Below are positions 51,551-64,000 of a stretch of DNA of 64,000 nucleotides, one piece after another. How positions within the stretch are numbered: position 1 is the stretch's first letter; each line of letters begins with the position of its first letter. The position numbers and the translations under genes were made by a program. Source of the stretch: Halocalculus aciditolerans (GTDB lineage Archaea; Halobacteriota; Halobacteria; Halobacteriales; Halobacteriaceae); contig NZ_BMPG01000003.1 in the NCBI RefSeq assembly GCF_014647475.1, forward strand, positions 434,001 through 498,000. The letters are read 5' to 3'. The notes beneath the pieces were generated by a model. The model was not told where the DNA came from. It searched no databases and saw only the letters and a list, made by a program, of their open reading frames with translations.

Positions 51551-52342
51551 ATGACAGACCGGGAGCGCGCGGGTGACGGCGGGCAGGGCGGTCGGGCAAC
51601 CATCAAGAGCCTGGAGACGACGTTCACCATCGTGGAATCGCTGCAGGAGCTCGGCGGCGGTCGGCTGACGGAGCTCGCGACGCACACGGGAATCTCGAAG
51701 AGCACGGTGCACAAGCATCTCGCGACGCTCGTCGAGCAGGGGTACGTCGTGAAGGAGGGCGACGACTACCGGCTCGGCTTCAAGTTCCTCGACGTCGGCG
51801 GGCACGCGCGCGCCGAGTTCCTCGGGACGGACATCATCAAGCCGAAGATGCAGGAGTTAGCGGAGAAAACGAGCGAGACGGCGCAGTTCATGACGGAGGA
51901 ACGCGGCCGTGCGGTCGTCCTCTATCGCGAGGCGGGCCGAAAGAGCGTGCCGTCGCGCACGCGCACGGGGAAGCACATGTATCTCCACCAGACGGCGTCG
52001 GGGAAGGCCATCCTCTCCGGCCTGCCGGACGAGCGCGTGCACGAGATTCTCGACGAGCGCGGGCTGCCGCGGGCGACGGAGTCCACTATCACGGACCGGG
52101 AGGCGCTCCTCGAGGAGCTCGCGGAGATTCGCGAGACCGGCATCTCGTACAGTTACGGCGAGAGCACGAAGGGGCTCTACGCCGTCGCCGCGCCGATGTA
52201 CTCGCCCGACGACACGGTGCTCGGCGCGTGCGCGGTCTCGGGGCCGAGCCACCGGATGCGGGGCGAACCGATGAGCGAGGAACTCCCGAGCATCATTCTC
52301 AGCATCGTGAACGAGATCGAACTGAACATCGCCCACGCCTGA
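51551..52342 (+). CDS. IclR family transcriptional regulator
   Basis: The protein has 263 residues from ATG 51551, about 30 bases after a TATA-like box. The N-terminal wHTH has T-F-T-I-V-E-S-L-Q-E-L, L-T-E-L-A and S-K-S-T-V-H-K-H-L-A-T-L. The effector domain has L-H-Q-T-A-S-G-K-A-I-L-S and Y-A-V-A-A-P-M. IclR proteins sense organic or aromatic acids and control catabolic operons. Its position inside the cluster makes it the probable pathway regulator, with the palindrome at 51480-51506 as its own operator. Confidence 0.9.
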   Translation: MTDRERAGDGGQGGRATIKSLETTFTIVESLQELGGGRLTELATHTGISKSTVHKHLATLVEQGYVVKEGDDYRLGFKFLDVGGHARAEFLGTDIIKPKMQELAEKTSETAQFMTEERGRAVVLYREAGRKSVPSRTRTGKHMYLHQTASGKAILSGLPDERVHEILDERGLPRATESTITDREALLEELAEIRETGISYSYGESTKGLYAVAAPMYSPDDTVLGACAVSGPSHRMRGEPMSEELPSIILSIVNEIELNIAHA

Positions 52343-52367: not shown

Positions 52368-52584
52368 CGGCGGGCATCATTTCTTACAATTGTACTCCCG
52401 TAAAGCAATTCGGTCGGCGTCGACGCCGAGGCCACACGGCGAGGAGAGCCGGCGGCGTCGAGCAGGAACGTTTATTACAGATCGAGAAGAATAATGAGTG
52501 CCGAGAGTCTTCTGAACCCCGATTTTTTCTCGATAGTCGGGAGACAGGGGCATCGTTTTGTAAGTGGCCGTCCAACGGCGGGGT

Positions 52585-53844
52585 ATGGCCGCAGGGACGA
52601 TAGCCCAGCAGGTGCTATCAGCGCACGCTTCGCGAGACGACACGCCGTCGGCCGGTGAACACGTCACCGTCCGACCGGACTGGATACTCTGCCACGACAT
52701 CTCCGCGTACTCGGGGATGGAGCGGATGGGCGAGCTCGGCTACACCGAAATCGCGCATCCGGAGGACGTCATCATGGTCTTCGACCACTACGTGCCGTCG
52801 CCGAACGAGCGCATCAGCACGCAGATGAACCAGCTCTCCGAGTGGGCGGACGCGCAGGGCATCGAGCACTTCTTCCGGTCCGGGAACGGCATCAGCCACA
52901 ACATCATGAACGAGCAGGGGTACTCCCTGCCCGGTTCTCTCATTCTGGGCGCGGACTCCCACACCGTCACGCACGGGGCGTTCGGGTCGTTCGCGACCGG
53001 TATCGGACACACCGACCTCGGCGAAGTGCTCGGGTCGGGCGAGCTCTGGCTGAAGGTGCCGGAGACGCAGAAAGTCACGGTGGAAGGGATGCTCCCGGAC
53101 GGCGTCGGGGCGAAGGACCTCGCGCTCGCGATGATGCGGGAGTTCACGACGACGGGCGCGATCTACGACTCCGTGGAGTTCTACGGTGAGGCGGTGGAGA
53201 ACCTCGAGATGCACGAGCGCCACACCCTCTCGAACATCACGGTCGAGATGGGGGCGATGGCGGGTATCGTCCCACCGGACGAAGTGACCGAAGAACACCT
53301 CGACGGCGTCGCCGTGCGCGACTACACGCCGGTCACGGCGAGCGCGGACGCGACGTACAGCCGGGAGCGCCGAGTGGACGCGAGCGACCTCGAACCGCTC
53401 GTCGCCGCGCCCGCCGCCGTCGACAACGTCTCGCCCGTCACCGACCATGAAGGAACCGCCGTCGACCACGTCTTCGTCGGCACCTGCAACAACTCCAGCT
53501 GGGCGGACATCGAGGCGTTCGCCGACCTCATCGACGGCGAGACCATCGCCCCCGACACCGACCTCGTGGTGACGCCGGGGACGAAGGAGACGCTGAAGCA
53601 GATGAACAGCACGGGCGTCTCGAACGCGATTATGGACGCGGGCGGGATGGTCGGCACGCCCGGCTGTGGCTCCTGCTTCGGCGCGCACGGCGGCATCCTC
53701 GGCGAGAGCGACACCTGCGTCGGGACGATGAACCGCAACTTCCCCGGGCGGATGGGGCCGGGCGAGATCTACCTCGCCAGTCCGCAGACCGCCGCCGCCG
53801 CGGCACTCTACGGCGAGATTACGGACCCCCGGGAGGTGCGCTAG
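52585..53844 (+). CDS. Aconitase-family hydratase, large subunit (copy 1)
   Basis: The protein has 419 residues from ATG 52585. It is the size of LeuC/homoaconitase-type large subunits of archaea. Fe-S ligands appear in F-V-G-T-C-N-N-S-S and G-C-G-S-C-F-G. G-A-D-S-H-T-V-T-H-G and M-N-R-N-F-P-G-R-M-G are substrate and active-site blocks. With the small subunit directly after it, the enzyme should interconvert a hydroxy-di- or tricarboxylate and its unsaturated form. A convergent isocitrate-lyase-family gene suggests methylisocitrate or 2,3-dimethylmalate as product, but isopropylmalate-type chemistry cannot be excluded. Confidence 0.85.
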   Translation: MAAGTIAQQVLSAHASRDDTPSAGEHVTVRPDWILCHDISAYSGMERMGELGYTEIAHPEDVIMVFDHYVPSPNERISTQMNQLSEWADAQGIEHFFRSGNGISHNIMNEQGYSLPGSLILGADSHTVTHGAFGSFATGIGHTDLGEVLGSGELWLKVPETQKVTVEGMLPDGVGAKDLALAMMREFTTTGAIYDSVEFYGEAVENLEMHERHTLSNITVEMGAMAGIVPPDEVTEEHLDGVAVRDYTPVTASADATYSRERRVDASDLEPLVAAPAAVDNVSPVTDHEGTAVDHVFVGTCNNSSWADIEAFADLIDGETIAPDTDLVVTPGTKETLKQMNSTGVSNAIMDAGGMVGTPGCGSCFGAHGGILGESDTCVGTMNRNFPGRMGPGEIYLASPQTAAAAALYGEITDPREVR

Positions 53845-54384
53845 ATGGAGCGCTCTGGGCACGCACGCCTCCTCCCCGACGACGTCGACACCGACCAGAT
53901 CATCCCCGGCGAGTACCTGAACACGATCCCCGAAGACCAGCTCGGCGAGCACGTCCTCGAAGGCTACGACGCCGACTTCCCGGAGCGCGTCGCGGACGGC
54001 GACGTGCTGGTCGCGGGGAAGAACTTCGGGCTCGGGAGTTCGCGGGAGGCCGCGCCCATCGCCATCCGGAACGCCGGCGTCGCCGCGGTCGTCGCGGAGT
54101 CCTTCGCCCGCATCTTCTACCGGAACGCCATCAACGTCGGCCTCCCTATCGCCGTCGTCCCCGGAATCACCGAACACGTCTCCGAGGGCGACGTCGTCCG
54201 CGTCGACCTCACCGAGGGCCGCGTCGAGAACACGACGACGGGGAAATCGTTCTCCATCAGCCCGCTCCCCGACGACCTCACCGAAATCCTCGAAGCCGGC
54301 GGGCTCGTCCCGCTCCGCCAGCGACAGCGAACAGCGGAGCGAGAGGCAGGTCGAGGTGCGGGACGGAACGAAGAAGGCGAGTAG
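53845..54384 (+). CDS. Aconitase-family hydratase, small subunit (copy 1)
   Basis: The protein has 179 residues and begins on the base after the large-subunit stop. D-D-V-D-T-D-Q-I-I-P-G-E-Y-L-N-T holds the substrate-specificity loop (Y-L-N-T, compared with Y-L-R-T of homoaconitases). G-L-G-S-S-R-E is the conserved Ser/Arg block. The C-terminal 20 residues are a charged extension. It ends 3 bases from the convergent lyase gene. Confidence 0.85.
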   Translation: MERSGHARLLPDDVDTDQIIPGEYLNTIPEDQLGEHVLEGYDADFPERVADGDVLVAGKNFGLGSSREAAPIAIRNAGVAAVVAESFARIFYRNAINVGLPIAVVPGITEHVSEGDVVRVDLTEGRVENTTTGKSFSISPLPDDLTEILEAGGLVPLRQRQRTAEREAGRGAGRNEEGE

Positions 54385-54387
54385 GCG

Positions 54388-55302
54388 TTAGTTCTCGGCT
54401 TCCCGGTCGGCGTAGCGGTCTTTCGCGGCGGCGTACTTCGCTTCGAGGGCTTCGACGTCGCCCATCTCGGTTATCTCGTCGCGTTCCTCCCACTCGACCA
54501 TGCCGTCGAGGATGTTCTCCTGGCTGCGCTCGTCGATGAGCGTCTCGTAGGTGTCCTGGATGGTCTTCAGGGCGGCCTTGAAGGAGTCGGAGGGGTAGAT
54601 GGCCATGTCGTAGCCGATGTCGGTGAGTTCCTCGGCGGGGATGGGCGGCGTCTTCCCCTTCGCGGCGAGGTTGGCGAGGAGCGGGCTCGGGGCCTCGCGG
54701 CAGACGCGCTCCATCTCCTCGCGCTCGGTCGGCGCTTCGACGAAGAGGACGTCCGCGCCCGCTTCCTTGTATAGTTGGGCGCGGCGGATGGCTTCGTCGA
54801 GGCCGTCGACGGCGAGCGCGTCGGTTCGCGCGATAACGAGGAAATCCTCGCTCTCGCGGGCGTCCGTCGCCGCCTCGATCTTCGCCGCGAACTCAGGTGC
54901 AGAGATGATGTCCTTGCCTTCGAAGTGCCCGCAGCGCTTCGGGAACGTCTGGTCCTCCAGCTGGATGGCGTTCGCGCCGGCGCGCTCGTACTCGCGGACC
55001 GTGCGGTAGGCGTTGAGTTCGTTGCCGTAGCCGGTGTCGCCGTCGACGATGAGGGGGACGTCGAGGACGCCGGCCATCTGACGGGCGCGCCGCGTCATCT
55101 CCGTCATCGTCGTCAGTCCGATATCGGGGCCGCCGTGGACGGAGGAGGAGACGCAGGAGCCGGACATGTACACGGCTTCTGCGCCCGCTTGCTGTGCCAT
55201 TCGGGCGGTCAGCGCGTCCCACGCGCCGATCGCCATCAGTAACTCGTCACGCTCGATGAGCTCGCGAAGCGACGTCACGGGTGGAGAGTACGCGTGCGAC
55301 AC
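54388..55302 (-). CDS. Isocitrate lyase/PEP mutase family lyase
   Basis: The protein has 304 residues from GTG 55302; a TTG one codon upstream is possible. G-A-W-D-A-L near the start, V-D-G-D-T-G-Y-G-N and E-D-Q-T-F-P-K-R-C-G-H-F-E-G carry the metal site and the K-R-C-G-H catalytic loop (about 122-126) of lyases in this family. That loop favours C-C bond cleavage, as in methylisocitrate lyase or 2,3-dimethylmalate lyase, over PEP mutase. The product would include pyruvate. It is convergent with the copy 1 hydratase pair, which could supply the substrate. Confidence 0.85.
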   Translation of the reverse strand: MSHAYSPPVTSLRELIERDELLMAIGAWDALTARMAQQAGAEAVYMSGSCVSSSVHGGPDIGLTTMTEMTRRARQMAGVLDVPLIVDGDTGYGNELNAYRTVREYERAGANAIQLEDQTFPKRCGHFEGKDIISAPEFAAKIEAATDARESEDFLVIARTDALAVDGLDEAIRRAQLYKEAGADVLFVEAPTEREEMERVCREAPSPLLANLAAKGKTPPIPAEELTDIGYDMAIYPSDSFKAALKTIQDTYETLIDERSQENILDGMVEWEERDEITEMGDVEALEAKYAAAKDRYADREAEN

Positions 55303-55351: not shown

Positions 55352-55870
55352 TCAGTCGTCGGTGTGGCCGAGTTTCCGGCGGGTGTAGGGTTCGAGGCCG
55401 CCCTGGTCGACGAGGGACTGGAGGAAGTCGGGGAGGGGGTCGGCGTCGTGGGTTTCGCCGGTGGTGTGGTCGACGACGCGGCCGTCGCCGAGGTCGAGGT
55501 GGACCTCGTCGCCGTCGGCGATGCGGTCGGCGTCGGGGCAGACGAGGAGCGGGAGGCCGATGTTGATGGCGTTCCGGAAGAAGATGCGGGCGAAGGATCG
55601 GGCGACGACGCCGGAGACGCCCGCGCCCCGGAGGGCGACGGGGGCGTGTTCGCGGGAGGAGCCGCTGCCGAAGTTCTCGCCGGCGACGACGAAGTCGCCG
55701 GGTTCGACGCCCTCGGCGAAGTCGGGGCGGTGGTCGGCGAAGGCGTGCGCGCCGAGGTCGGCGGGGTCGCTGGAGACGAGGAAGCGCGAGGGGATGATCT
55801 GGTCGGTGTCGACGTCGTCGCCGAACGTCCAGGCGCGACCGGGAGTCACCGGGTCGCGGACGTCGCTCAT
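55352..55870 (-). CDS. Aconitase-family hydratase, small subunit (copy 2)
   Basis: The protein has 172 residues. D-D-V-D-T-D-Q-I-I-P-S-R-F-L-V-S carries a different specificity loop (F-L-V-S) from copy 1. G-S-G-S-S-R-E-H-A-P is the conserved block. Its start overlaps the stop of its large subunit by 4 bases. It is the last gene of the minus-strand operon that begins with a CoA-transferase at 59345. Confidence 0.85.
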   Translation of the reverse strand: MSDVRDPVTPGRAWTFGDDVDTDQIIPSRFLVSSDPADLGAHAFADHRPDFAEGVEPGDFVVAGENFGSGSSREHAPVALRGAGVSGVVARSFARIFFRNAINIGLPLLVCPDADRIADGDEVHLDLGDGRVVDHTTGETHDADPLPDFLQSLVDQGGLEPYTRRKLGHTDD

Positions 55871-57189
55871 GGCTGTGCCTCCGCGGGGGTGACGACGTCG
55901 TCGTCGTAGCGGGTCGTTTCGACCGTTCGCGGGTCGGTAATCTCGCCGTAGAGCGCGGACGCGCCGACGGTGGCGGGGCTGGCGAGGTAGACGCTGCTGT
56001 CCATGGAGCCTTCGCGGCCGGGGAAGTTCCGGTTCGCCGTGGCGAGGCAGACGTCGCCGTCGCCGAGGACGCCGTCGTGCGTGCCGAAACAGGGGCCGCA
56101 GCCCGCGCTCTGGACGATCGCGCCGGCGTCGACGAAGGTGTCGAAGACGCCGGTGTCCAGCATGCGGCGGTAGATCGCTTTCGAGGCGGGGACGACGACC
56201 ATGCGCGTGCCGGGGGCGAGGGTCTCGCCGTCGAGGATGTCGGCGACGACGCGGACGTCCTCGTACCGGCCGTTCGTGCAGGTGCCGACGAAGAGCTGGT
56301 CGACGGGGGTGCCGGCGACCGCGTCGACGTCGACGGCGTTCTCGGGGTTCGAGGGCTTCGAGACCTGCGGCGCGAGGTCGGCGGCGTCGTAGGTGTGGAC
56401 GGCGGCGTAGTCGGCGTCGTCGTCGGGCGCGAGAGAGACGTCGAAGCTCGATTCGGTGCGGCCGGTCTGGCGGGCGAGAAAGCGCGCGGTGCGCTCGTCG
56501 GGTTCGACGAGACCCGCCTTCCCGCCCATCTCGATGGCCATGTTCGAGAGGACGAGGCGCTCGTGAATCGGGAGGTCCTGAACGGCGGAGCCGCCGTACT
56601 CGGCCGCCCGGTAGGTCGCGCCGTCGAAGCCGACGTCGCCGATGAACCGGAGGATGAGGTCTTTCGCGTAGACGCCGTCCGGGAGCGTGCCCTCGACTTC
56701 GAAGCGCACGGAGTCGGGCACGCGGAACCAGAGGTCGCCGGTCGCCATGGCGGTGCCGAGGTCGGTGGAGCCGACGCCGGTGCCGAACGCGCCGAGGCCG
56801 CCGAAGGTCGTGGAGTGGGAGTCCGCGCCGACGACGAGGTCGCCGGGTTCGGCGAAGCCGTGCTCGACGAGGAGCTGGTGGCAGATGCCGTCGCCGACGT
56901 CGAACTGGACCGCGCCGAACTCGGCGGCGAAGTCGCGGACGGCGTTGTGGTTGTTCGCCGCCTGCACGCCGTCCGCGGGCGCGTGGTGGTCGATGGTGAT
57001 GACGGTGTTCTCGGGGTCGGCGAGCGGGCCGTCGCCGTCGGTGACGCCGCGGAACACCTCGAAGGTGAGCGGGCCGGTGACGTCGTGCGTGAGCATCGCG
57101 TCGACTTCGGCTTCGACGTAGTCGCCCGCGCGGGCGTCGGTGTTCGACTTCTCGGAGAGTATCCGTTCGGCGAGTGTTTTTCCGGTCAT
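55867..57189 (-). CDS. Aconitase-family hydratase, large subunit (copy 2, LeuC-like)
   Basis: The protein has 440 residues from ATG 57189, overlapping the stop of the lyase gene by 4 bases. Fe-S ligands are F-V-G-T-C-T-N-G-R-Y and G-C-G-P-C-F-G. The T-C-T-N-G-R version is typical of isopropylmalate/homoaconitate/citramalate-type enzymes. Copy 1 has T-C-N-N-S-S, so the two pairs probably act on different acids. In this operon it would hydrate an unsaturated dicarboxylate such as mesaconate or citraconate to citramalate; that substrate is my inference. Confidence 0.87.
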   Translation of the reverse strand: MTGKTLAERILSEKSNTDARAGDYVEAEVDAMLTHDVTGPLTFEVFRGVTDGDGPLADPENTVITIDHHAPADGVQAANNHNAVRDFAAEFGAVQFDVGDGICHQLLVEHGFAEPGDLVVGADSHSTTFGGLGAFGTGVGSTDLGTAMATGDLWFRVPDSVRFEVEGTLPDGVYAKDLILRFIGDVGFDGATYRAAEYGGSAVQDLPIHERLVLSNMAIEMGGKAGLVEPDERTARFLARQTGRTESSFDVSLAPDDDADYAAVHTYDAADLAPQVSKPSNPENAVDVDAVAGTPVDQLFVGTCTNGRYEDVRVVADILDGETLAPGTRMVVVPASKAIYRRMLDTGVFDTFVDAGAIVQSAGCGPCFGTHDGVLGDGDVCLATANRNFPGREGSMDSSVYLASPATVGASALYGEITDPRTVETTRYDDDVVTPAEAQP

Positions 57190-58133
57190 GGCTCTGCGTC
57201 GCTGGCGACGGTGTCGAGGACGCGGCGGGCGGTGCCGCCCATGAGGACGTGGCTCGTCGCGCCGAGGTCGAGGCGGTCGCTGATCGAGTGGGCGACCGCT
57301 TCGGTCCGCTCGAAGTCGAGGCCCGTGTCGACGCCCGTCTCGGTGAGCATGTGCGCGAGGTCTTCTGTCGGTGTGTTCCCGACGCCGGAGAGGCCCTCGG
57401 GGAGGACGACGCCGCCGCCGAGCCCGCAGACGGAGGCGTCGAAGCGGTCGACGCCGCACTGCATCGCGGCGAGCGTGTTCGCGAGGCTCATCCCGTTCGT
57501 GTCGTGGAGGTGGAGGCCGGCGTCGACGCCGGGGTGGCGGTCGAAGACCTCGGTGAACATCGCGTCCACCTGCACGGGGTTCGCGAGCCCCATCGTCGTC
57601 GCGAGCGTCACTTCGTCGACGCCCGCCTCGACAACGCGGTCCACGACCTCGAGCGTGCGTTCCTGTGGGATGCGGCCCTCGTAGGGGCAGTAGAAGCTCG
57701 TTCCGATGCCGGCCTCCACGAGGACGTCCGTCCCCGCGGCGAGGTCGACGATTTGCTCGACTTCGTCGAGGATTTCGCTCGTGCTCATCGACTGGTTCTT
57801 CCGGCTGTACGACTCGCTCACGGTGACGAGCGCGTTCACCTTATCGACGCCGGCGTCGAGCGCGCGCTCCATCCCGACCGCGTTCGGGACGAGCGCGCGG
57901 TACGTCACGTCGTCGCGGCGCGTAATCCGCCGGGCGACTTCGTCGGCGTCCCGGAGGTTCGGCACGGCCTTCGGATGCGTGAAGGACGTGAACTCGATTT
58001 CGTCCACGCCGGTCGTCGCGAGGTCGTCGATGATGGAGGCTTTTTCGTCCGTTGGGACGAAGCGGTCGAGGCGCTGGAAGCCGTCGCGCGGCAGCATCTC
58101 GACGACGTGCACGGAGTCGGGCAGGTCGAGCAT
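57186..58133 (-). CDS. HMG-CoA lyase-like enzyme
   Basis: The protein has 315 residues. E-M-L-P-R-D-G-F-Q (R16, D17), G-L-H-L-H-D-T-N-G-M (metal His 208 and 210), and C-G-L-G-G-G (C236) are the catalytic set of the HMG-CoA lyase family. F-Y-C-P-Y-E-G is also family-typical. It cleaves a 3-hydroxy-3-methylacyl-CoA type thioester to acetyl-CoA (or a homologue) plus a keto acid. The CoA-transferase encoded directly upstream should make its substrate, so citramalyl-CoA-like compounds fit as well as HMG-CoA. Confidence 0.88.
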   Translation of the reverse strand: MLDLPDSVHVVEMLPRDGFQRLDRFVPTDEKASIIDDLATTGVDEIEFTSFTHPKAVPNLRDADEVARRITRRDDVTYRALVPNAVGMERALDAGVDKVNALVTVSESYSRKNQSMSTSEILDEVEQIVDLAAGTDVLVEAGIGTSFYCPYEGRIPQERTLEVVDRVVEAGVDEVTLATTMGLANPVQVDAMFTEVFDRHPGVDAGLHLHDTNGMSLANTLAAMQCGVDRFDASVCGLGGGVVLPEGLSGVGNTPTEDLAHMLTETGVDTGLDFERTEAVAHSISDRLDLGATSHVLMGGTARRVLDTVASDAEP

Positions 58134-59345
58134 CTAGATCACCCCCTCGGATTCGAGGTCGCGCCGGGTTTCGGCGTCGTAGCCGAGGAAGTCGCCGTAG
58201 ACGGCGTCGTTGTGCGCGCCGAGCGCCGGCCCGAGGTGGTCGACGCGGCCGGGCGTGTCACCGAACTTCGGGGTGACGCCCTGCACGAGGCCGGAGCCGA
58301 GGTCGTCGTCGTCGACGTCGACGACGGCGTCTCGCGCCCGATAGTGGGGGTCCTCGACGATATCGGCGACGTTGTAGATGGGCGCGATGGTCGCGCCCGT
58401 GTCCTCGAAGACGTCGAGGACGGTCTCGCGGTCGCGGTCGGCCATCCAGTCGGCGATGACGGCGTCGAGTTCCTCGACGTGTTCGACGCGTTTCTCGTTC
58501 GTCGCGAAGCGCGAGTCGTCCTTCAGGTCGGGGCGGTCGATGGCGTCGAAGACCCGCATCGCCGTCGGCTGCGTCGACGCGGAGACGGCGACGTACCGGC
58601 CGTCGCCCGTCTCGTAGACGTTCCGCGGCGCGCTCGACGTCGAGCGGTTCCCGGACCGGCGGTCGACGTCGCCGAGCTGGTCGTAGCGGAGCGGCTGCGG
58701 GCCGAGGATGGAGAAGATGGGTTCGATGAGGCTCGTGTCGACGACCTGTCCGCCGCCGCCGTTCACCTCGCGGTTCCAGAGCGCGAACATCACGGAGAAC
58801 GTCGCGTACATCGCGGCGACGCCGTCCGCCAGCCCGGTCGGCGGGAGGAGGGGTTCGCGGTCCGGGAAGCCGTTGAGGAACGCGAAGCCGCTCATCGACT
58901 CGGCGAGCGTCCCGAACCCGGGGCGTTCCGCGTACGGGCCGGTCTGTCCGAACCCGGAGATGCGGCACGCGACGAGGTCCTCGTTCACCTCGTCGGTGAG
59001 GCGCTCGGGGTCGAGCCCCCAGCGTTCGAGCGTCCCCGGTCGGAAGTTCTCCACGAGGACGTCCGCCTCCCGGAGGAGGTCCTCGAAGACGACGCGGCCC
59101 GCGTCGGTCGAGATGTCGAGCGTCACCGACTGCTTGTTGCGCCCGAGGTATTTCCACCAGAGGCCCGCGCCGTCCTTCTGGGGGCCGAACCGCCGGAGGT
59201 GGTCGCCGTCGGGGTGTTCGACCTTTATCACGGTCGCGCCGAAGTCGCCGAGGAGGCGACCGACGGTGCCCGCGGAAATCATCGTGCCTGCTTCGACGAC
59301 GACGAGCCCGTCGAGGGGCCCGTCCGTCCCGGTAGTAGTCTGCAT
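58134..59345 (-). CDS. Class III CoA-transferase-like protein, catalytic Asp position altered
   Basis: The protein has 403 residues from ATG 59345. It has the family fold (G-L-V-V-V-E-A-G-T, G-A-T-V-I-K-V-E-H-P, L-G-R-N-K-Q-S-V-T-L-D-I). Where the Asp nucleophile normally stands it reads P-G-F-G-T-L-A-E-S, Gly145 instead of Asp. Either this branch uses another residue, or the alignment is shifted. Its stop abuts the start of the lyase gene, with no gap. It is the first gene of the CoA-transferase, lyase, LeuC-like, LeuD-like operon. Confidence 0.85.
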   Translation of the reverse strand: MQTTTGTDGPLDGLVVVEAGTMISAGTVGRLLGDFGATVIKVEHPDGDHLRRFGPQKDGAGLWWKYLGRNKQSVTLDISTDAGRVVFEDLLREADVLVENFRPGTLERWGLDPERLTDEVNEDLVACRISGFGQTGPYAERPGFGTLAESMSGFAFLNGFPDREPLLPPTGLADGVAAMYATFSVMFALWNREVNGGGGQVVDTSLIEPIFSILGPQPLRYDQLGDVDRRSGNRSTSSAPRNVYETGDGRYVAVSASTQPTAMRVFDAIDRPDLKDDSRFATNEKRVEHVEELDAVIADWMADRDRETVLDVFEDTGATIAPIYNVADIVEDPHYRARDAVVDVDDDDLGSGLVQGVTPKFGDTPGRVDHLGPALGAHNDAVYGDFLGYDAETRRDLESEGVI

Positions 59346-59425: not shown

Positions 59426-60826
59426 TCAGAGAGGCCGGTCGATGTGCGTGCCGTAGCCCTTCTCGCCGACGACGTCGCCGTCGTCGAAGGCGAGCTGGCC
59501 GCGGACGACGGTCTGCGTCGGCCAGCCCGTGACCGCCGTGCCCTCGTAGGGCGAGTAGTCGGGCGCGCCCTGGAGGAGTTCCGGGGTGATGGTCTTCGTC
59601 TCGTCGAGGTCGACGACGGCGAGGTCGGCGTCGCTCCCCACTCTGACTGTGCCCTTCTTCGGGTGGAGGTCGAAGGCCTTCGCCGTGTTCGTCGACGTGA
59701 CTTCGACGGCGCGCTCCAGGCTGATGCGGCCCTCGTTCACGCCCTCGGAGAGGATGAGCGGGAGCATCGCCGGCGTGCTCGGGAAGCCCGGCAGGCTGTC
59801 GGGGACGTCGTCGCCGATCTTGTCCGCTGCGAGGTTCGCGCAGTGGTCCGTCCCGATCGTCGAAATCGTCCCGTCCGCGACGCGCTCCCAGAGCGTCTCC
59901 TGGTCCTCCTTCGAGCGGACGGGCGGGTTGACGTTCATGCGCTCGTCGCACTCCTCGGTCGTGAGGGTGAGGTAGTGCGTGCAGGTCTCGCCGGTGAGGC
60001 GGTAGCCGGCGTTCCGGAGCGCCGCGAGCTCGTCCGCCGTCTTCCCCGAGGAGATGTGGACCGCATAGAAATCGTCGTCGTAGTCGTGTTGTTTGGCGAG
60101 CGACGCCCCCGAGACCATGCTCTGGGTCTCGGCGTAGCCGGGGAACTGGTCGACGAGCGTCTGGTAGTCGCGGTATTCGGCGTCGTCGTCGCGTTCGACG
60201 TCGAGGTAGGGGTTGTCGCCGAGCGAACTCGTGATCTCGACGTTCTCCGAGTGGTAGCCGAGCGTCGTGGGCGCGTCGACGTCCGCGAGCGCCTGAATGA
60301 AGGCGTCGCCGAAGTCGTCCCGCATCTCGCAGTCGACGCCGAACTTCTCCGTCGCGACGTACTTGTAGTTCATATACCACTTGAAAGAGGTGATACCGAG
60401 GTCCTCGACGATAGTCGGGATTTCCTCGACGTGCTCGAAGGAGAGCAGGCCGAGCGAGAAGAAGTAATCGTGGTAGTAGTTCTCCTCGGCCTGCTCGAAG
60501 TAGTCGCCCATGATCTCCTCGTAGGAGCCGGGGCGGCGGAAGTAGTTCCCGATGGTGGTGACGCCGCCGACGAGGTCGGCGCGGGATTCGGATTCGCCGT
60601 CGGCGTCGAGGCCGCGGTAGATGCCGTGGTGGGTGTGCGGGTCGATGGCTCCGGGGAGGACGTGCTTCCCGGACGCGTCGATTTCGGTCTCGCCGGAGAG
60701 CGTGCCGGGTTCGGCGACGGCGGCGATCTTCTCGCCCGACGCCGCGACGTCAGCTTCGAAGGTGCCGTGTTCGGGCGTGACGACCGTGCCGTTCGAGACG
60801 ACGAGGTCGTACTCGCGGTCAGTCAT
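59426..60826 (-). CDS. Dihydropyrimidinase/hydantoinase-like amidohydrolase
   Basis: The protein has 466 residues from ATG 60826, overlapping the upstream amidase gene by 8 bases. Metal ligands are H-T-H (H64, H66), the Lys likely to be carboxylated in S-F-K-W-Y (K149), G-Y-H-S-E (H192), V-H-I-S-S-G (H257) and G-T-D-H (D327). That is the complete binuclear site of cyclic amidohydrolases, which open hydantoin, dihydropyrimidine, allantoin or related rings. With the amidase it would convert a cyclic amide or imide to an open-chain acid. Confidence 0.88.
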   Translation of the reverse strand: MTDREYDLVVSNGTVVTPEHGTFEADVAASGEKIAAVAEPGTLSGETEIDASGKHVLPGAIDPHTHHGIYRGLDADGESESRADLVGGVTTIGNYFRRPGSYEEIMGDYFEQAEENYYHDYFFSLGLLSFEHVEEIPTIVEDLGITSFKWYMNYKYVATEKFGVDCEMRDDFGDAFIQALADVDAPTTLGYHSENVEITSSLGDNPYLDVERDDDAEYRDYQTLVDQFPGYAETQSMVSGASLAKQHDYDDDFYAVHISSGKTADELAALRNAGYRLTGETCTHYLTLTTEECDERMNVNPPVRSKEDQETLWERVADGTISTIGTDHCANLAADKIGDDVPDSLPGFPSTPAMLPLILSEGVNEGRISLERAVEVTSTNTAKAFDLHPKKGTVRVGSDADLAVVDLDETKTITPELLQGAPDYSPYEGTAVTGWPTQTVVRGQLAFDDGDVVGEKGYGTHIDRPL

Positions 60827-61484
60827 CGAGGGCCTCCACATACGCCTCGACTTCCTCGGTCTCCAGGACTTCGGCGTACTTCATCCAGAGGTCCATCAGG
60901 CCGATCTTGTGCGACGCCTCGATGCGGTCGAAGATGCACTCCTGGGGGAGGAGGACGTCGAAGCCGTTCTGCTTCGCGTCGATGGCGGTCGCGCGCACGC
61001 AGCCGCTCGTGGAGTTCCCGACGACGATGACGGAGTCGTGGCCGCCACGGACGAGCCGGGAGAGGAGGTCCGTGCCGTAGAACGCGCTCGCGTACGATTT
61101 GTCGATGACCGTCTCGCCGTCCGCGGGAGCGACGGGGTCGACGATTCGGAGGTCGTCGTGGTCGGGGTCGTCGTAGCTCGACGGGACGACGCGCGTGTAG
61201 ATGACGGGAACGTCGTGGTCGCGCGCGAAGTCGAGGAACGGCTCGATGTAGTCGATGGCGTCCCACGCGATCTCCCCCATCGCGGTGCGGTGTTTCTCGA
61301 CGGCGTCGAGGATGGGTTCGTCGTCGCCGACGATGAGCTCCTGCATGTCGATGACGAGGACCGCGGGGTTCTCCCCGAGCCCGCGGGACTCCCAGGAGGA
61401 CGCGCCCTCCTCGTCGTAGCCCGCTTTCGAAATCACTTGCTTGTCCCGCTCCGTGAGTAGATCTTCCCAGATACGCTCGGTCAT
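60819..61484 (-). CDS. Isochorismatase-like cysteine hydrolase (amidase)
   Basis: The protein has 221 residues from ATG 61484. L-V-I-D-M-Q (D46), I-D-K-S-Y-A-S-A-F-Y-G-T-D-L (K129) and S-T-S-G-C-V-R-A-T-A (C162) form the Asp-Lys-Cys triad. Family members include N-carbamoylsarcosine amidase, maleamate amidase and RutB ureidoacrylate hydrolase. All of these remove ammonia or carbamate from open-chain amides. Overlap with the hydantoinase-like gene points to consecutive steps. Confidence 0.88.
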   Translation of the reverse strand: MTERIWEDLLTERDKQVISKAGYDEEGASSWESRGLGENPAVLVIDMQELIVGDDEPILDAVEKHRTAMGEIAWDAIDYIEPFLDFARDHDVPVIYTRVVPSSYDDPDHDDLRIVDPVAPADGETVIDKSYASAFYGTDLLSRLVRGGHDSVIVVGNSTSGCVRATAIDAKQNGFDVLLPQECIFDRIEASHKIGLMDLWMKYAEVLETEEVEAYVEALDD

Positions 61485-61535
61485 GCTTGACAACCTCACA
61501 CTACACTTTCGCCCGGGTTCGCTTAAACCTACTTC

Positions 61536-62522
61536 TTACACCGGTGTCGGCGCGAACGCGTCGAGGACGGCTTCGGCGAGGTCGCGGTCGGCGTTTGACG
61601 GCGCGCGCACGATGGGGAGGTCGACGCCCATCGCGCGGACCGCGTCGAGTTCCTCCCGGGCGTCTTCGGGGGTGCCCCAGATTGCGACGGTGTCGAGGAA
61701 GTCGTCGCCGAGGTGCGCTACGCCCGCCTCGGTGCTCGGGGCGTCGCGGACTGCCGCGACGTCGTCGCCGAACCCGGCCTCCTCGGCGGCGCGGCCGTAG
61801 TAGCCGGGGACGTCGCGGAGGTAGTAGGCGACGTGTTCGGCGGCCGCTCGGCGGGCGACGGCGGGGTCGTCGTCGACGGCGGCGAGGACGTACATCGCCA
61901 CGTCGATGTCCGCGACGTCGCGGTCGGCGCGTTCAGCGCCCGTCGCCAGCCACTCCTTCGCCTCGGCGAACTGCTCGCGTGGGTAGAGGTTCGGCAGCCA
62001 GCCGTCGCAGTACTCGCCGGTGAGGCGGACGTTCCCGGGGCCGAGCGCGCCGTTATAGATGGGGACGTCGGCGCGTTCGGGTTCGAAGGCGTCCCAGAAG
62101 CTCGTGCGCGCGGGGGTGAAGAACTCGCCGTCGAACGCCTCGGGCGTCCCAGACAGGTAGCGGCGGACGAGTTCGACGTATTCGGCGAGTCGGGGGAGCG
62201 GGCGGTCGAAGGGAACGCCGTGAAAGTCCTCGACGACGCCGGGGTGGGCGACGCCGAGGCCGAGAATGGCGCGGCCGTCGGAGTGCGCGTCGAGGGTGGC
62301 GACGGCCTGCGCGAGCGCCGCCGGCGTCCGCGAGAAGACGTTCACGATGCCCGTGCCGAGTCGGACGTCGTCCGTGACGGTCGCCCAGCGCTCCAGTTTC
62401 CCGAACGCGGTCTTCCCCTGGCCTTCGGCGGCCCAGACGCTCTCGTAGCCGAGTGCGTCCGCGCGCCGGACGAGGTCGAGGTCGTCGCGGAGCGCGAACA
62501 GGACGCCGGTCCGTTCGGTCAT
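61536..62522 (-). CDS. Luciferase-like (LLM) oxidoreductase, probably F420-dependent
   Basis: The protein has 328 residues from ATG 62522. R-T-G-V-L-F-A-L opens the barrel. G-Y-E-S-V-W-A-A-E, R-L-G-T-G-I-V-N-V-F-S-R-T-P and G-R-A-I-L-G-L-G follow, typical of haloarchaeal luciferase-like proteins that use coenzyme F420. It could be a dehydrogenase or, as in RutA, a ring-attacking monooxygenase. It lies just upstream of the amidase and hydantoinase genes on the same strand, so it may act first on the same compound. Confidence 0.82.
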   Translation of the reverse strand: MTERTGVLFALRDDLDLVRRADALGYESVWAAEGQGKTAFGKLERWATVTDDVRLGTGIVNVFSRTPAALAQAVATLDAHSDGRAILGLGVAHPGVVEDFHGVPFDRPLPRLAEYVELVRRYLSGTPEAFDGEFFTPARTSFWDAFEPERADVPIYNGALGPGNVRLTGEYCDGWLPNLYPREQFAEAKEWLATGAERADRDVADIDVAMYVLAAVDDDPAVARRAAAEHVAYYLRDVPGYYGRAAEEAGFGDDVAAVRDAPSTEAGVAHLGDDFLDTVAIWGTPEDAREELDAVRAMGVDLPIVRAPSNADRDLAEAVLDAFAPTPV

Positions 62523-62666
62523 CGGCGGCCCTCCGCGGAGAGAGCGAGCGCACGCGGTGGTCGCTGCGGTGAGCGCATCATACCGTGGACGTTCGCGGCC
62601 GGGGGCATAACGGTATCCCCGCGTGCGGGGCGATAGCTTTAGGCGGTGTGGGTCGAACCAGCGTGC

Positions 62667-64000
62667 ATGGTCGAGCAAGCAGAGAGGAGCGGCGAGCGCG
62701 TGGTATCGGTCGCGGACGTATCGTTCGACGTCGAGACGGACGTCCTCGTCGCGGGCGGCGGCGGCACGGGTCTCGTCGCGGCGCTCGCCGCGTCCGAGAA
62801 CCCGGACCTGACCGTGACAGTGCTGGAGAAGAGCCCGGACGTCGGCGGGAACACGTCGCTCTCGACGGGGATGGTGCCGGCGGCGGGGACGCGCCTCCAG
62901 CGCGAGGCGGGCATCGAGGAGTCCCCTGCGGACATGGCGCGAGACATCTTGGAGAAGAACGACTACACGGCGGACGAGGCGATGGTCCGGCGTCTCTGCG
63001 CGGAGAGCGCGGACCTCGTCCACTGGCTCGTGGACGACTGGGACGTATCGCTCTCGCTCGTGGACGATTTCAAATACCCCAAACACTCCGAGTATCGGAT
63101 GCACGCGCCGCCGGGGCGGAACGGGGCGAACCTCGTCGCCGAGTTGCGAGCGCGCGTCGAGGAGACACCGAACGTCGAACTCCTGACGAACACGCCGGTG
63201 ACGACGCTCGTAGCGGACGACGCCGGGGTTGTCGGCGTCGTCGCAGGCGACCGGCGCTCGGAAGCCATCGCCGCAGAGAAGGTAATTCTCGCGACGGACG
63301 GGTTCGGGGGGAACCGGGAGATGATCACGGAGTGGTGTCCGGAGATCGAGGACGCGGTGTACTTCGGCGCGGACGGGAACACGGGGGACGGCATCCGGTG
63401 GGGGGCGGCGCTCGGCGGCGAGCTCGCCTGCATGGACGCCTATCAGGGGCACGCGACGGTCGCGTCGGGACAGCTCTCGACCTATGCGGTGGTGATGAAC
63501 GGCGGCGTGCTCGTGAACGAGCGCGGGGAGCGGTTCGGCGACGAGTCCGCGGGGTACTCGGCGTTCGCCGTCGACGTCCTCAGGCAGCCGGGCGGGCACG
63601 CGTTCGAACTGTTCGACGAGCGCATCTTCGAGCGCCTCCGGGGCGAGTTCGACGACTTCGACGAGGCCGTCGAGAGCGGCGTCTACCACGAGGCCGAGTC
63701 GGTCGAGGCGCTCGCGGAGACGCTGGGGTTCGACGCCGACGCCGCGGCCGAAGCCGTCGAGAGATATAACGCCGCGGCGGCGGCGGGCGAGCCGGACGAG
63801 ACGGGGCGAGAAGACGGCGTGCACGCGCTCGAAGCGCCGTTCTACGGCGCGAAGGTGACGGGCGCGCTCTTCCACACGCAGGGCGGGCTGGTCGTCGACG
63901 AGGACGCGCGCGTCCTCCGCGAGGACGGGACGGTCGTGGAGAACCTCTACGCGGGCGGCGGGACGGCGTGCGGCATCAGCGGGCACGGGCCGGGCGGCTA
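62667..64000 (+). CDS. FAD-dependent dehydrogenase, fumarate reductase/succinate dehydrogenase flavoprotein type (3' end outside window)
   Basis: The frame from ATG 62667 is open to the window end (444 codons seen). V-L-V-A-G-G-G-G-T-G-L-V-A-A-L-A-A is the FAD-binding start, and E-K-S-P-D-V-G-G-N-T follows. L-A-T-D-G-F-G-G-N and the near-terminal G-G-G-T-A-C-G-I-S-G-H-G-P-G-G are family blocks. There is no Tat signal or membrane anchor. Relatives include tricarballylate and ketosteroid dehydrogenases and soluble fumarate reductases. It is divergent from the luciferase-like gene and probably oxidises a saturated acid in the cluster's pathway. Confidence 0.85.
   Translation, partial: MVEQAERSGERVVSVADVSFDVETDVLVAGGGGTGLVAALAASENPDLTVTVLEKSPDVGGNTSLSTGMVPAAGTRLQREAGIEESPADMARDILEKNDYTADEAMVRRLCAESADLVHWLVDDWDVSLSLVDDFKYPKHSEYRMHAPPGRNGANLVAELRARVEETPNVELLTNTPVTTLVADDAGVVGVVAGDRRSEAIAAEKVILATDGFGGNREMITEWCPEIEDAVYFGADGNTGDGIRWGAALGGELACMDAYQGHATVASGQLSTYAVVMNGGVLVNERGERFGDESAGYSAFAVDVLRQPGGHAFELFDERIFERLRGEFDDFDEAVESGVYHEAESVEALAETLGFDADAAAEAVERYNAAAAAGEPDETGREDGVHALEAPFYGAKVTGALFHTQGGLVVDEDARVLREDGTVVENLYAGGGTACGISGHGPGG

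What the first reader, a model, noticed from the sequence alone, without database searches (positions are those of the whole stretch)
59426..64000. Ring-opening module: luciferase-like enzyme, amidase, hydantoinase-like and FAD dehydrogenase
The hydantoinase-like and isochorismatase-like genes overlap by 8 bases, and both keep full catalytic sets. A probable F420 enzyme and a divergent FAD dehydrogenase flank them. With the neighbouring operon this predicts degradation of a cyclic amide or imide, pyrimidine or nicotinate-like compound to a dicarboxylate. The LLM plus isochorismatase combination recalls RutA/RutB of pyrimidine breakdown, but the hydantoinase is extra.
Basis: inference. Interest (0 to 1): 0.52.

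Follow-up and report, generated by a model that had tools for sequence, protein, structure and literature searches.

The report
Haloarchaeal cyclic-imide breakdown gene cluster
A salt-loving archaeon carries a conserved set of about a dozen genes that most likely opens a small nitrogen-containing ring, strips off its ammonia and cuts the remaining branched acid into central-metabolism pieces; the enzymes are of known kinds but this combination appears undescribed.

Summary
The genes are real. The hydantoinase-like (HYD) and isochorismatase-like (ISO) genes overlap by 8 bases (ATGACTGA), and their catalytic residues are intact. In 292 sampled genomes ISO occurs in 26, all of which also carry HYD and HMGL. 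A LIV-type transporter and MmgE/PrpD usually accompany it. The aconitase-like pair is not the leucine enzyme (LeuC lies elsewhere); both subunits best match Methanocaldococcus isopropylmalate/citramalate isomerase. HMGL lacks the loop cysteine of HMG-CoA lyase in 37 of 37 sequences. RutA and RutB models score far below cut-off, so the Rut comparison fails. Best explanation (about 0.5): a five-membered, alkylated cyclic imide is opened to a half-amide, then to a cis-dicarboxylate, hydrated to a citramalate-type acid, CoA-activated and cleaved to pyruvate plus an acyl-CoA. The main rival is hydantoin opening to an N-carbamoyl amino acid. The substrate was not determined.

The parts
59426..60826 (-). 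HYD: D-hydantoinase/dihydropyrimidinase-superfamily amidohydrolase (alternative start 60841)
   Evidence: metal ligands and carbamylated-Lys position invariant in 34/34; 8-base overlap with ISO
60819..61484 (-). ISO: isochorismatase-superfamily amidohydrolase, nearest solved relative N-carbamoylsarcosine amidohydrolase
   Evidence: D46/K129/C162 triad
61536..62522 (-). LLM: luciferase-like oxidoreductase, nearest to F420-dependent Mer; usually paired with an NTF2/SnoaL-like gene in relatives, not detected in this genome
62667..64000 (+). FRD: fumarate-reductase-superfamily FAD protein (continues to 64082 outside the window, as L005:3767-5182)
   Evidence: dicarboxylate-binding Arg positions replaced
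58134..59345 (-). CoAT3: class III CoA-transferase (Asp174 in GLAD motif)
57186..58133 (-). HMGL: HMG-CoA lyase-family lyase without the canonical loop Cys
55867..57189 (-). AcnL2: aconitase-superfamily hydratase, large subunit
55352..55870 (-). AcnS2: hydratase small subunit, loop PSRFLVSSDP
54388..55260 (-). PrpB/ICL: isocitrate lyase/PEP mutase-family lyase (accessory; beside the cluster in only some loci)
52564..53844 (+). AcnL1: second aconitase-superfamily large subunit (accessory)
53845..54384 (+). AcnS1: its small subunit (accessory)
51551..52342 (+). IclR1: IclR-family regulator

Best explanation
The cluster is one catabolic pathway for an imported small cyclic imide, most likely a five-membered succinimide/maleimide ring carrying at least one alkyl group (a methyl in the simplest case). 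Inferred order: (1) a LIV-type ABC transporter imports the compound; (2) LLM and/or FRD adjust the redox state of the ring; (3) HYD hydrolyses the imide to a half-amide; (4) ISO hydrolyses the half-amide to ammonia and a dicarboxylate, and if the ring is unsaturated the product has cis (maleate-type) geometry; (5) AcnL2/S2, of a superfamily that acts on cis-alkenes (recalled), hydrates it to a citramalate-type hydroxy acid; (6) CoAT3 makes the CoA ester; (7) HMGL cleaves it to a 2-oxoacid (pyruvate for a methyl substituent) and an acyl-CoA. MmgE/PrpD would epimerise a substituted succinate. Shown here: gene identity, catalytic residues, conserved linkage, and that AcnL2 is not the housekeeping leucine enzyme. 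Inferred: substrate, order and every reaction.
For: Linkage: ISO-HYD-CoAT3-HMGL-AcnL2-AcnS2 in order in 17 of 17 haloarchaeal loci; 26 of 26 ISO genomes have HMGL, all on the same contig. No aminotransferase, PLP enzyme or ammonia-lyase was found in the recurrent gene set, which fits loss of all nitrogen as ammonia. AcnL2: 405 bits to M. jannaschii isopropylmalate/citramalate isomerase against 357 to homoaconitase; AcnS2: 177 against 132, and its loop reads F(L/I)V in 34 of 34 rather than the homoaconitase LR. Housekeeping LeuC is elsewhere. [quoted passage not shown] CoA transfer to (R)-citramalate and (R)-citramalyl-CoA cleavage exist as EC 2.8.3.20 and 4.1.3.46 (PMC8307300 passages). Bacterial plasmids pair HYD+ISO relatives with an aconitase and/or an ICL/PEP-mutase-family lyase in Shinella, Antarctobacter and Hydrogenophaga, and Cupriavidus has CoAT-HMGL-LeuC-LeuD.
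Against: No activity is known. HYD relatives at 58-61% identity sit beside urocanate-hydratase-like, ammonia-lyase and D-aminoacylase genes in Haloarcula and Halomicrococcus, which suggests a hydantoin substrate there. ISO's best solved relative is a carbamoyl-amidase, N-carbamoylsarcosine amidohydrolase. FRD was not found in 4 of the 14 complete core loci among the 16 fetched (L046, L047, L053, L058), so it may be dispensable. FRD has lost dicarboxylate-binding Arg positions, so a free substituted succinate is an unlikely substrate for it. Of 7 bacterial regions brought in by ISO that were examined, only 3 carry an adjacent HYD. Characterised haloarchaeal Mct does not use citramalate or citraconate (PMC5592240 passages), though it is a different CoA transferase.
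Confidence: 0.5

Rival explanations
1. Hydantoin route: HYD opens a 5-substituted hydantoin to an N-carbamoyl amino acid and ISO, as an N-carbamoylsarcosine-amidohydrolase-like enzyme, releases the amino acid, CO2 and ammonia; the acid module then handles its carbon skeleton.
For: HYD belongs to the hydantoinase superfamily; ISO's best solved relative is N-carbamoylsarcosine amidohydrolase; HYD relatives at 58-61% lie in urocanate-hydratase/ammonia-lyase operons that look like ergothioneine breakdown; NCBIfam hydantoin-5-propionate amidohydrolase models match HYD at 172.7 and 168.3 bits, far under their cut-offs.
Against: Nothing in the recurrent gene set removes an amino group, and it does not explain a citramalate-isomerase-type hydratase, a CoA transferase and a C-C lyase always linked to HYD/ISO.
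Confidence: 0.25
2. Nicotinate-type route like Eubacterium barkeri: a six-membered lactam is opened (enamidase), giving a branched C6 dicarboxylate that is hydrated by an aconitase-type enzyme and cleaved by a dimethylmalate-lyase-type enzyme (pathway recalled).
For: The window also has AcnL1/S1 and a PrpB/ICL-family lyase; three bacterial HYD+ISO loci have an ICL/PEP-mutase-family lyase.
Against: No nicotinate hydroxylase, methyleneglutarate mutase or hydroxymethylglutarate dehydrogenase was seen among the annotated genes; ISO would be unnecessary; the PrpB gene lies beside the core in only some loci.
Confidence: 0.1
3. Pyrimidine breakdown (Rut-like or reductive).
For: LLM plus isochorismatase-family gene; hydantoinase superfamily includes dihydropyrimidinase.
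Against: RutA and RutB models score 20.6 of 498.3 and 26.1 of 377.95 bits; no other Rut genes seen; the linked acid module is unexplained.
Confidence: 0.06
4. The ring-opening genes and the acid module are unrelated neighbours.
For: They are about 33 kb apart in one Halomarina plasmid, and the HMGL orthologue occurs without ISO in 2 of 28 genomes that have it; bacteria have CoAT-HMGL pairs without HYD/ISO.
Against: 17 of 17 loci and 26 of 26 ISO genomes keep them linked on one contig.
Confidence: 0.03

Closest known systems
Bacterial cyclic-imide metabolism (imidase plus half-amidase; recalled)
   Same: Hydantoinase-superfamily ring opening followed by amide hydrolysis to a dicarboxylate
   Different: Here linked to a citramalate-isomerase-type hydratase, CoA transferase and lyase, in archaea; no gene-level description found
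Itaconate/methylsuccinate degradation cluster of pseudomonads (PMC12290011)
   Same: CoA transferase, MmgE/PrpD and a C-C lyase giving acetyl-CoA and pyruvate from branched C5 diacids
   Different: Uses itaconyl-CoA hydratase and a (S)-citramalyl-CoA lyase; no ring-opening enzymes in the passages read; HMG-CoA lyase is not mentioned in the text
M. jannaschii isopropylmalate/citramalate isomerase
   Same: Best solved relative of both AcnL2 and AcnS2
   Different: Biosynthetic there (recalled); here in a catabolic cluster, with a separate LeuC in the same genome
(R)-citramalyl-CoA lyase and succinyl-CoA:(R)-citramalate CoA-transferase (EC 4.1.3.46, 2.8.3.20)
   Same: Predicted reactions of HMGL and CoAT3 (reactions named in PMC8307300 passages)
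   Different: Sequence relationship not tested; that the Chloroflexus lyase resembles HMG-CoA lyase is recalled
Rut pyrimidine pathway
   Same: LLM and isochorismatase-family folds
   Different: Neither protein reaches the Rut models; hydantoinase and acid module are extra

Membership tests
D-hydantoinase/dihydropyrimidinase (TIGR02033) | Model score above cut-off | tested here: not met
   258.8 against 393.25 bits
D-hydantoinase/dihydropyrimidinase (TIGR02033) | HxH, carbamylated Lys, two His, Asp metal centre | tested here: met
   34 of 34
D-hydantoinase/dihydropyrimidinase (TIGR02033) | Activity on hydantoin or dihydropyrimidine | not testable with these tools
   needs assay
RutA/RutB pyrimidine utilisation | RutA and RutB model scores above cut-off | tested here: not met
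   20.6 of 498.3; 26.1 of 377.95
Isochorismatase-superfamily amidohydrolases | Pfam match and Asp-Lys-Cys triad | tested here: met
   PF00857 102.6 bits; D46 34 of 35, K129 and C162 35 of 35
HMG-CoA lyase | NCBIfam subfamily model | tested here: met
   277.9 against 246 bits
HMG-CoA lyase | Catalytic loop Cys (GLGGC; role recalled) | tested here: not met
   Gly plus 3-residue insertion in 37 of 37; Cys236 and Gly241 both invariant
LeuC of leucine biosynthesis (TIGR00170) | Model score above cut-off | tested here: not met
   best stretch 148.9 of 560.25; true LeuC at C1:786612-788000, 594.2 bits
Isopropylmalate/citramalate isomerase | Closest solved relative and small-subunit loop without Arg | tested here: met
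   activity untested
Fumarate reductase (flavocytochrome c) | R402 and R544 (Shewanella numbering, recalled) | tested here: not met
   Tyr297 in 30 of 30 at the R402 position; GYL in place of the R544 region
F420-dependent LLM oxidoreductase | F420 binding | not testable with these tools
   nearest structures are Mer; TIGR04024 214.7 of 345.4 bits

The most novel reading that the evidence does not exclude
An undescribed archaeal pathway for C-alkylated maleimides or succinimides, possibly the methyl-alkylmaleimides released when tetrapyrroles break down in brines, in which ring geometry hands a cis-diacid to a repurposed citramalate-isomerase-type hydratase and a member of the HMG-CoA lyase family without the usual loop cysteine makes the final cut.
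Probability: 0.25. Interest if true: 0.7.

Novelty: new variant of a known kind. Interest (0 to 1): 0.5.

Why it matters
If true it gives genes to cyclic-imide catabolism in archaea, assigns roles to genes now annotated amidohydrolase, isochorismatase, hydroxymethylglutaryl-CoA lyase and 3-isopropylmalate dehydratase in many Haloferax, Halorubrum and Natrialbaceae records, and points to a carbon and nitrogen source in brines that has been overlooked. Current annotation calls the AcnL2/S2 pair a leucine enzyme and HMGL an HMG-CoA lyase, and neither label fits the tests made here.

Tried and rejected
Rut-type pyrimidine pathway: rejected on model scores. Housekeeping leucine role for AcnL2/S2: rejected. 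Homoaconitate-type substrate: made less likely by the small-subunit loop, which also weakens a carboxyethyl side chain such as that of hematinic acid. A shared operator: an ATACCGT/ACGGTAT inverted repeat lies between LLM and FRD, but it was not conserved across loci; no regulatory motif is claimed. An NTF2-like partner of LLM, common in relatives, gave no match in this genome (that tool warns that an empty answer lacks a positive control, though the same query matches relatives). Literature searches returned nothing; others returned papers. Of these PMC12290011 (section 11 plus passages), PMC5592240 and PMC8307300 (passages) were informative; PMC3832036, PMC6801745 and PMC8305020 were looked at by passage search only; the rest were seen in the listing only. 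The statement that no description was found covers only these searches of an open-licence library. No structure prediction was run, because the open question is substrate specificity, which a fold would not settle.

L012 (same contig as L011) was left out, and matches under 55% identity were dropped, so each protein has 30-37 sequences. Some of these loci come from a named record and an unnamed copy of the same region, so the counts are not independent.
Full report
Observation. HYD and ISO overlap by ATGACTGA, 8 bases, if HYD starts at 60826. Overlap recurs: of 11 orthologous loci scanned, 7 show a 4-base and 1 an 8-base overlap, while 3 gave no overlapping start. HYD keeps H69, H71, K154, H197, H262 and D332 in 34 of 34 sequences; ISO keeps D46 in 34 of 35 and K129 and C162 in 35 of 35. 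The FAD protein (FRD) runs off the window; its remainder was read from the same contig.

One unit, not two modules. The minus-strand genes AcnS2, AcnL2, HMGL and CoAT3 are packed (-4, -4, 0 bases between them), then 80 bases to HYD, -8 to ISO and 51 to LLM. A scan of genome contigs with HYD returned 18 loci, 17 of them haloarchaeal. In all 17 the order ISO-HYD-CoAT3-HMGL-AcnL2-AcnS2 is kept, with FRD present in 17. LLM lies between FRD and ISO in 12, further downstream in 3, and was not seen in 2 (L018, L022). In a sample of 292 genomes of the class, ISO is in 26, HYD in 27 and HMGL in 28. All 26 ISO genomes have the other two; ISO and HMGL share a contig in 26 of 26 and a strand in 25 of 26, with gaps of 2.6-2.9 kb in 25 and 5.6 kb in one. 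The expected overlap of ISO and HMGL is 2.5. None of the 17 other genomes listed from this organism's own family has any of the three above threshold, so the cluster is scattered and probably mobile; many relatives carry it on plasmids.

Of 16 further regions fetched, two were chosen because they lack ISO (L048, L049) and have CoAT-HMGL only; 13 have the core in order; one (L045) has the two halves adjacent in opposite orientation. FRD was not found in 4 of those 14 (L046, L047, L053, L058). Accessory genes that recur are a LIV-type ABC transporter, one or two MmgE/PrpD genes, an NTF2-like gene before LLM, an IclR regulator, and sometimes a PrpB/ICL-family lyase, an SDR or an MFS gene. In Halomarina sp. 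BND7 HYD/ISO and CoAT/HMGL/Acn lie about 33 kb apart on one plasmid with two further HYD+ISO pairs between them, one beside a CitE-type lyase and CoA transferase, the other near an acyl-CoA ligase, an aconitase pair and an ICL-family lyase.

What the acid module does. AcnL2 and AcnS2 both match M. jannaschii isopropylmalate/citramalate isomerase best (405 and 177 bits) ahead of homoaconitase (357 and 132 bits). The small-subunit loop reads PSRF(L/I)V in 34 of 34, like the RYLV of the citramalate isomerase and unlike the PYLR of homoaconitase as printed; that this loop sets specificity, and that the M. jannaschii names belong to these chains' source organism, are recalled. The genome's leucine LeuC is a different gene at C1:786612-788000, the only match above the family cut-off. 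CoAT3 is a class III transferase whose best NCBIfam match is succinate-glutarate CoA-transferase, far below cut-off (225.6 of 750). HMGL passes the HMG-CoA lyase subfamily model and keeps R16, D17 and E47 in 37 of 37 and the HLH motif, but the GLGGC loop is GLGGG (or GVGGG) with a three-residue insertion in 37 of 37. Of seven non-core relatives aligned there, five bacterial ones keep the Cys and Aminobacter has the GGG form, as does the haloarchaeal L025 copy. The window proteins therefore form a subfamily with an altered active-site loop; whether the invariant Cys236 substitutes is unknown.

MmgE/PrpD (L005:10033-11349) is closest to B. subtilis IRG1 and iminodisuccinate epimerase. [quoted passage not shown] section 11 read, other passages by search). 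That supports a substituted succinate/maleate core, hence a five-membered imide ring, over a hydantoin or pyrimidine.

FRD. The top solved match is a flavocytochrome c3 entry, 1jrz (that it is the R402Y mutant is recalled), which aligns its Tyr with Tyr297 of FRD; Tyr297 is invariant in 30 of 30 and the R544 region reads GYL. FRD thus lacks the arginines that hold fumarate, which suits a ring compound better than a free dicarboxylate. This is inference.

Bacterial parallels. Shinella has ISO, HYD, AcnA and an ICL/PEP-mutase-family gene together; Antarctobacter has the same set plus NTF2-like and LLM genes; Hydrogenophaga has HYD+ISO+PrpB. Four other ISO-containing bacterial regions have no adjacent HYD. 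Variovorax has a HYD relative near an LLM gene and F420 biosynthesis genes, a lead for F420 use. Cupriavidus has CoAT-HMGL-LeuC-LeuD without ring-opening genes.

The main counter-evidence. HYD relatives at 58-61% lie beside urocanate-hydratase, ammonia-lyase and D-aminoacylase genes in Haloarcula and Halomicrococcus, a context that suggests ergothioneine breakdown through hydantoin-5-propionate (route recalled). HYD in this cluster could therefore open a hydantoin. I keep that as the leading rival at 0.25, because it leaves the acid module unexplained.

Verdict. The most probable reading is a cyclic-imide to branched-dicarboxylate to citramalate-type cleavage pathway. All reactions remain untested.

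Noticed in passing
window 1-38000 against 40001-64000: G+C is 0.49-0.59 on the left and 0.66-0.72 on the right, a sharp change of composition near 38-40 kb; the left part looks like an island or has a different history.
   Followed up: no
L026 (Halomarina sp. BND7 plasmid, NZ_CP100455.1 252000-300000): Three different HYD+ISO pairs, two different CoA-transferase/lyase pairs (HMGL and CitE types) and two aconitase pairs in 40 kb: apparently three related ring-opening pathways side by side.
   Followed up: partly
L028 11998-13389 and L040 9995-11386: HYD relatives (58-61%) next to urocanate-hydratase-like, ammonia-lyase and D-aminoacylase genes in Haloarcula and Halomicrococcus: probable haloarchaeal ergothioneine catabolism operons.
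   Followed up: partly
L011 and L012 (Haloferax massiliensis NZ_CSTE01000007.1, 32129-53535 and 10002-31408): The whole cluster occurs twice in opposite orientation on one contig; a large inverted duplication or an assembly artefact.
   Followed up: no
L053 about 8841 (G080): ISO has lost its normal N-terminus including the catalytic Asp although the rest of the core is present; possibly a decaying copy or a sequencing frameshift.
   Followed up: no
L037 809-11368 (Variovorax sp. PBL-E5 plasmid): F420 biosynthesis genes (cofE, C, D, H, G), an F420 reductase and an LLM gene lie beside a HYD-like amidohydrolase.
   Followed up: no
L035 9983-10984 (Aminobacter sp. MSH1 plasmid pUSP2): A bacterial HMGL with the same Cys-less GGG loop as the window protein, next to a nitroreductase, an acyl-CoA dehydrogenase and a CoA transferase.
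   Followed up: no
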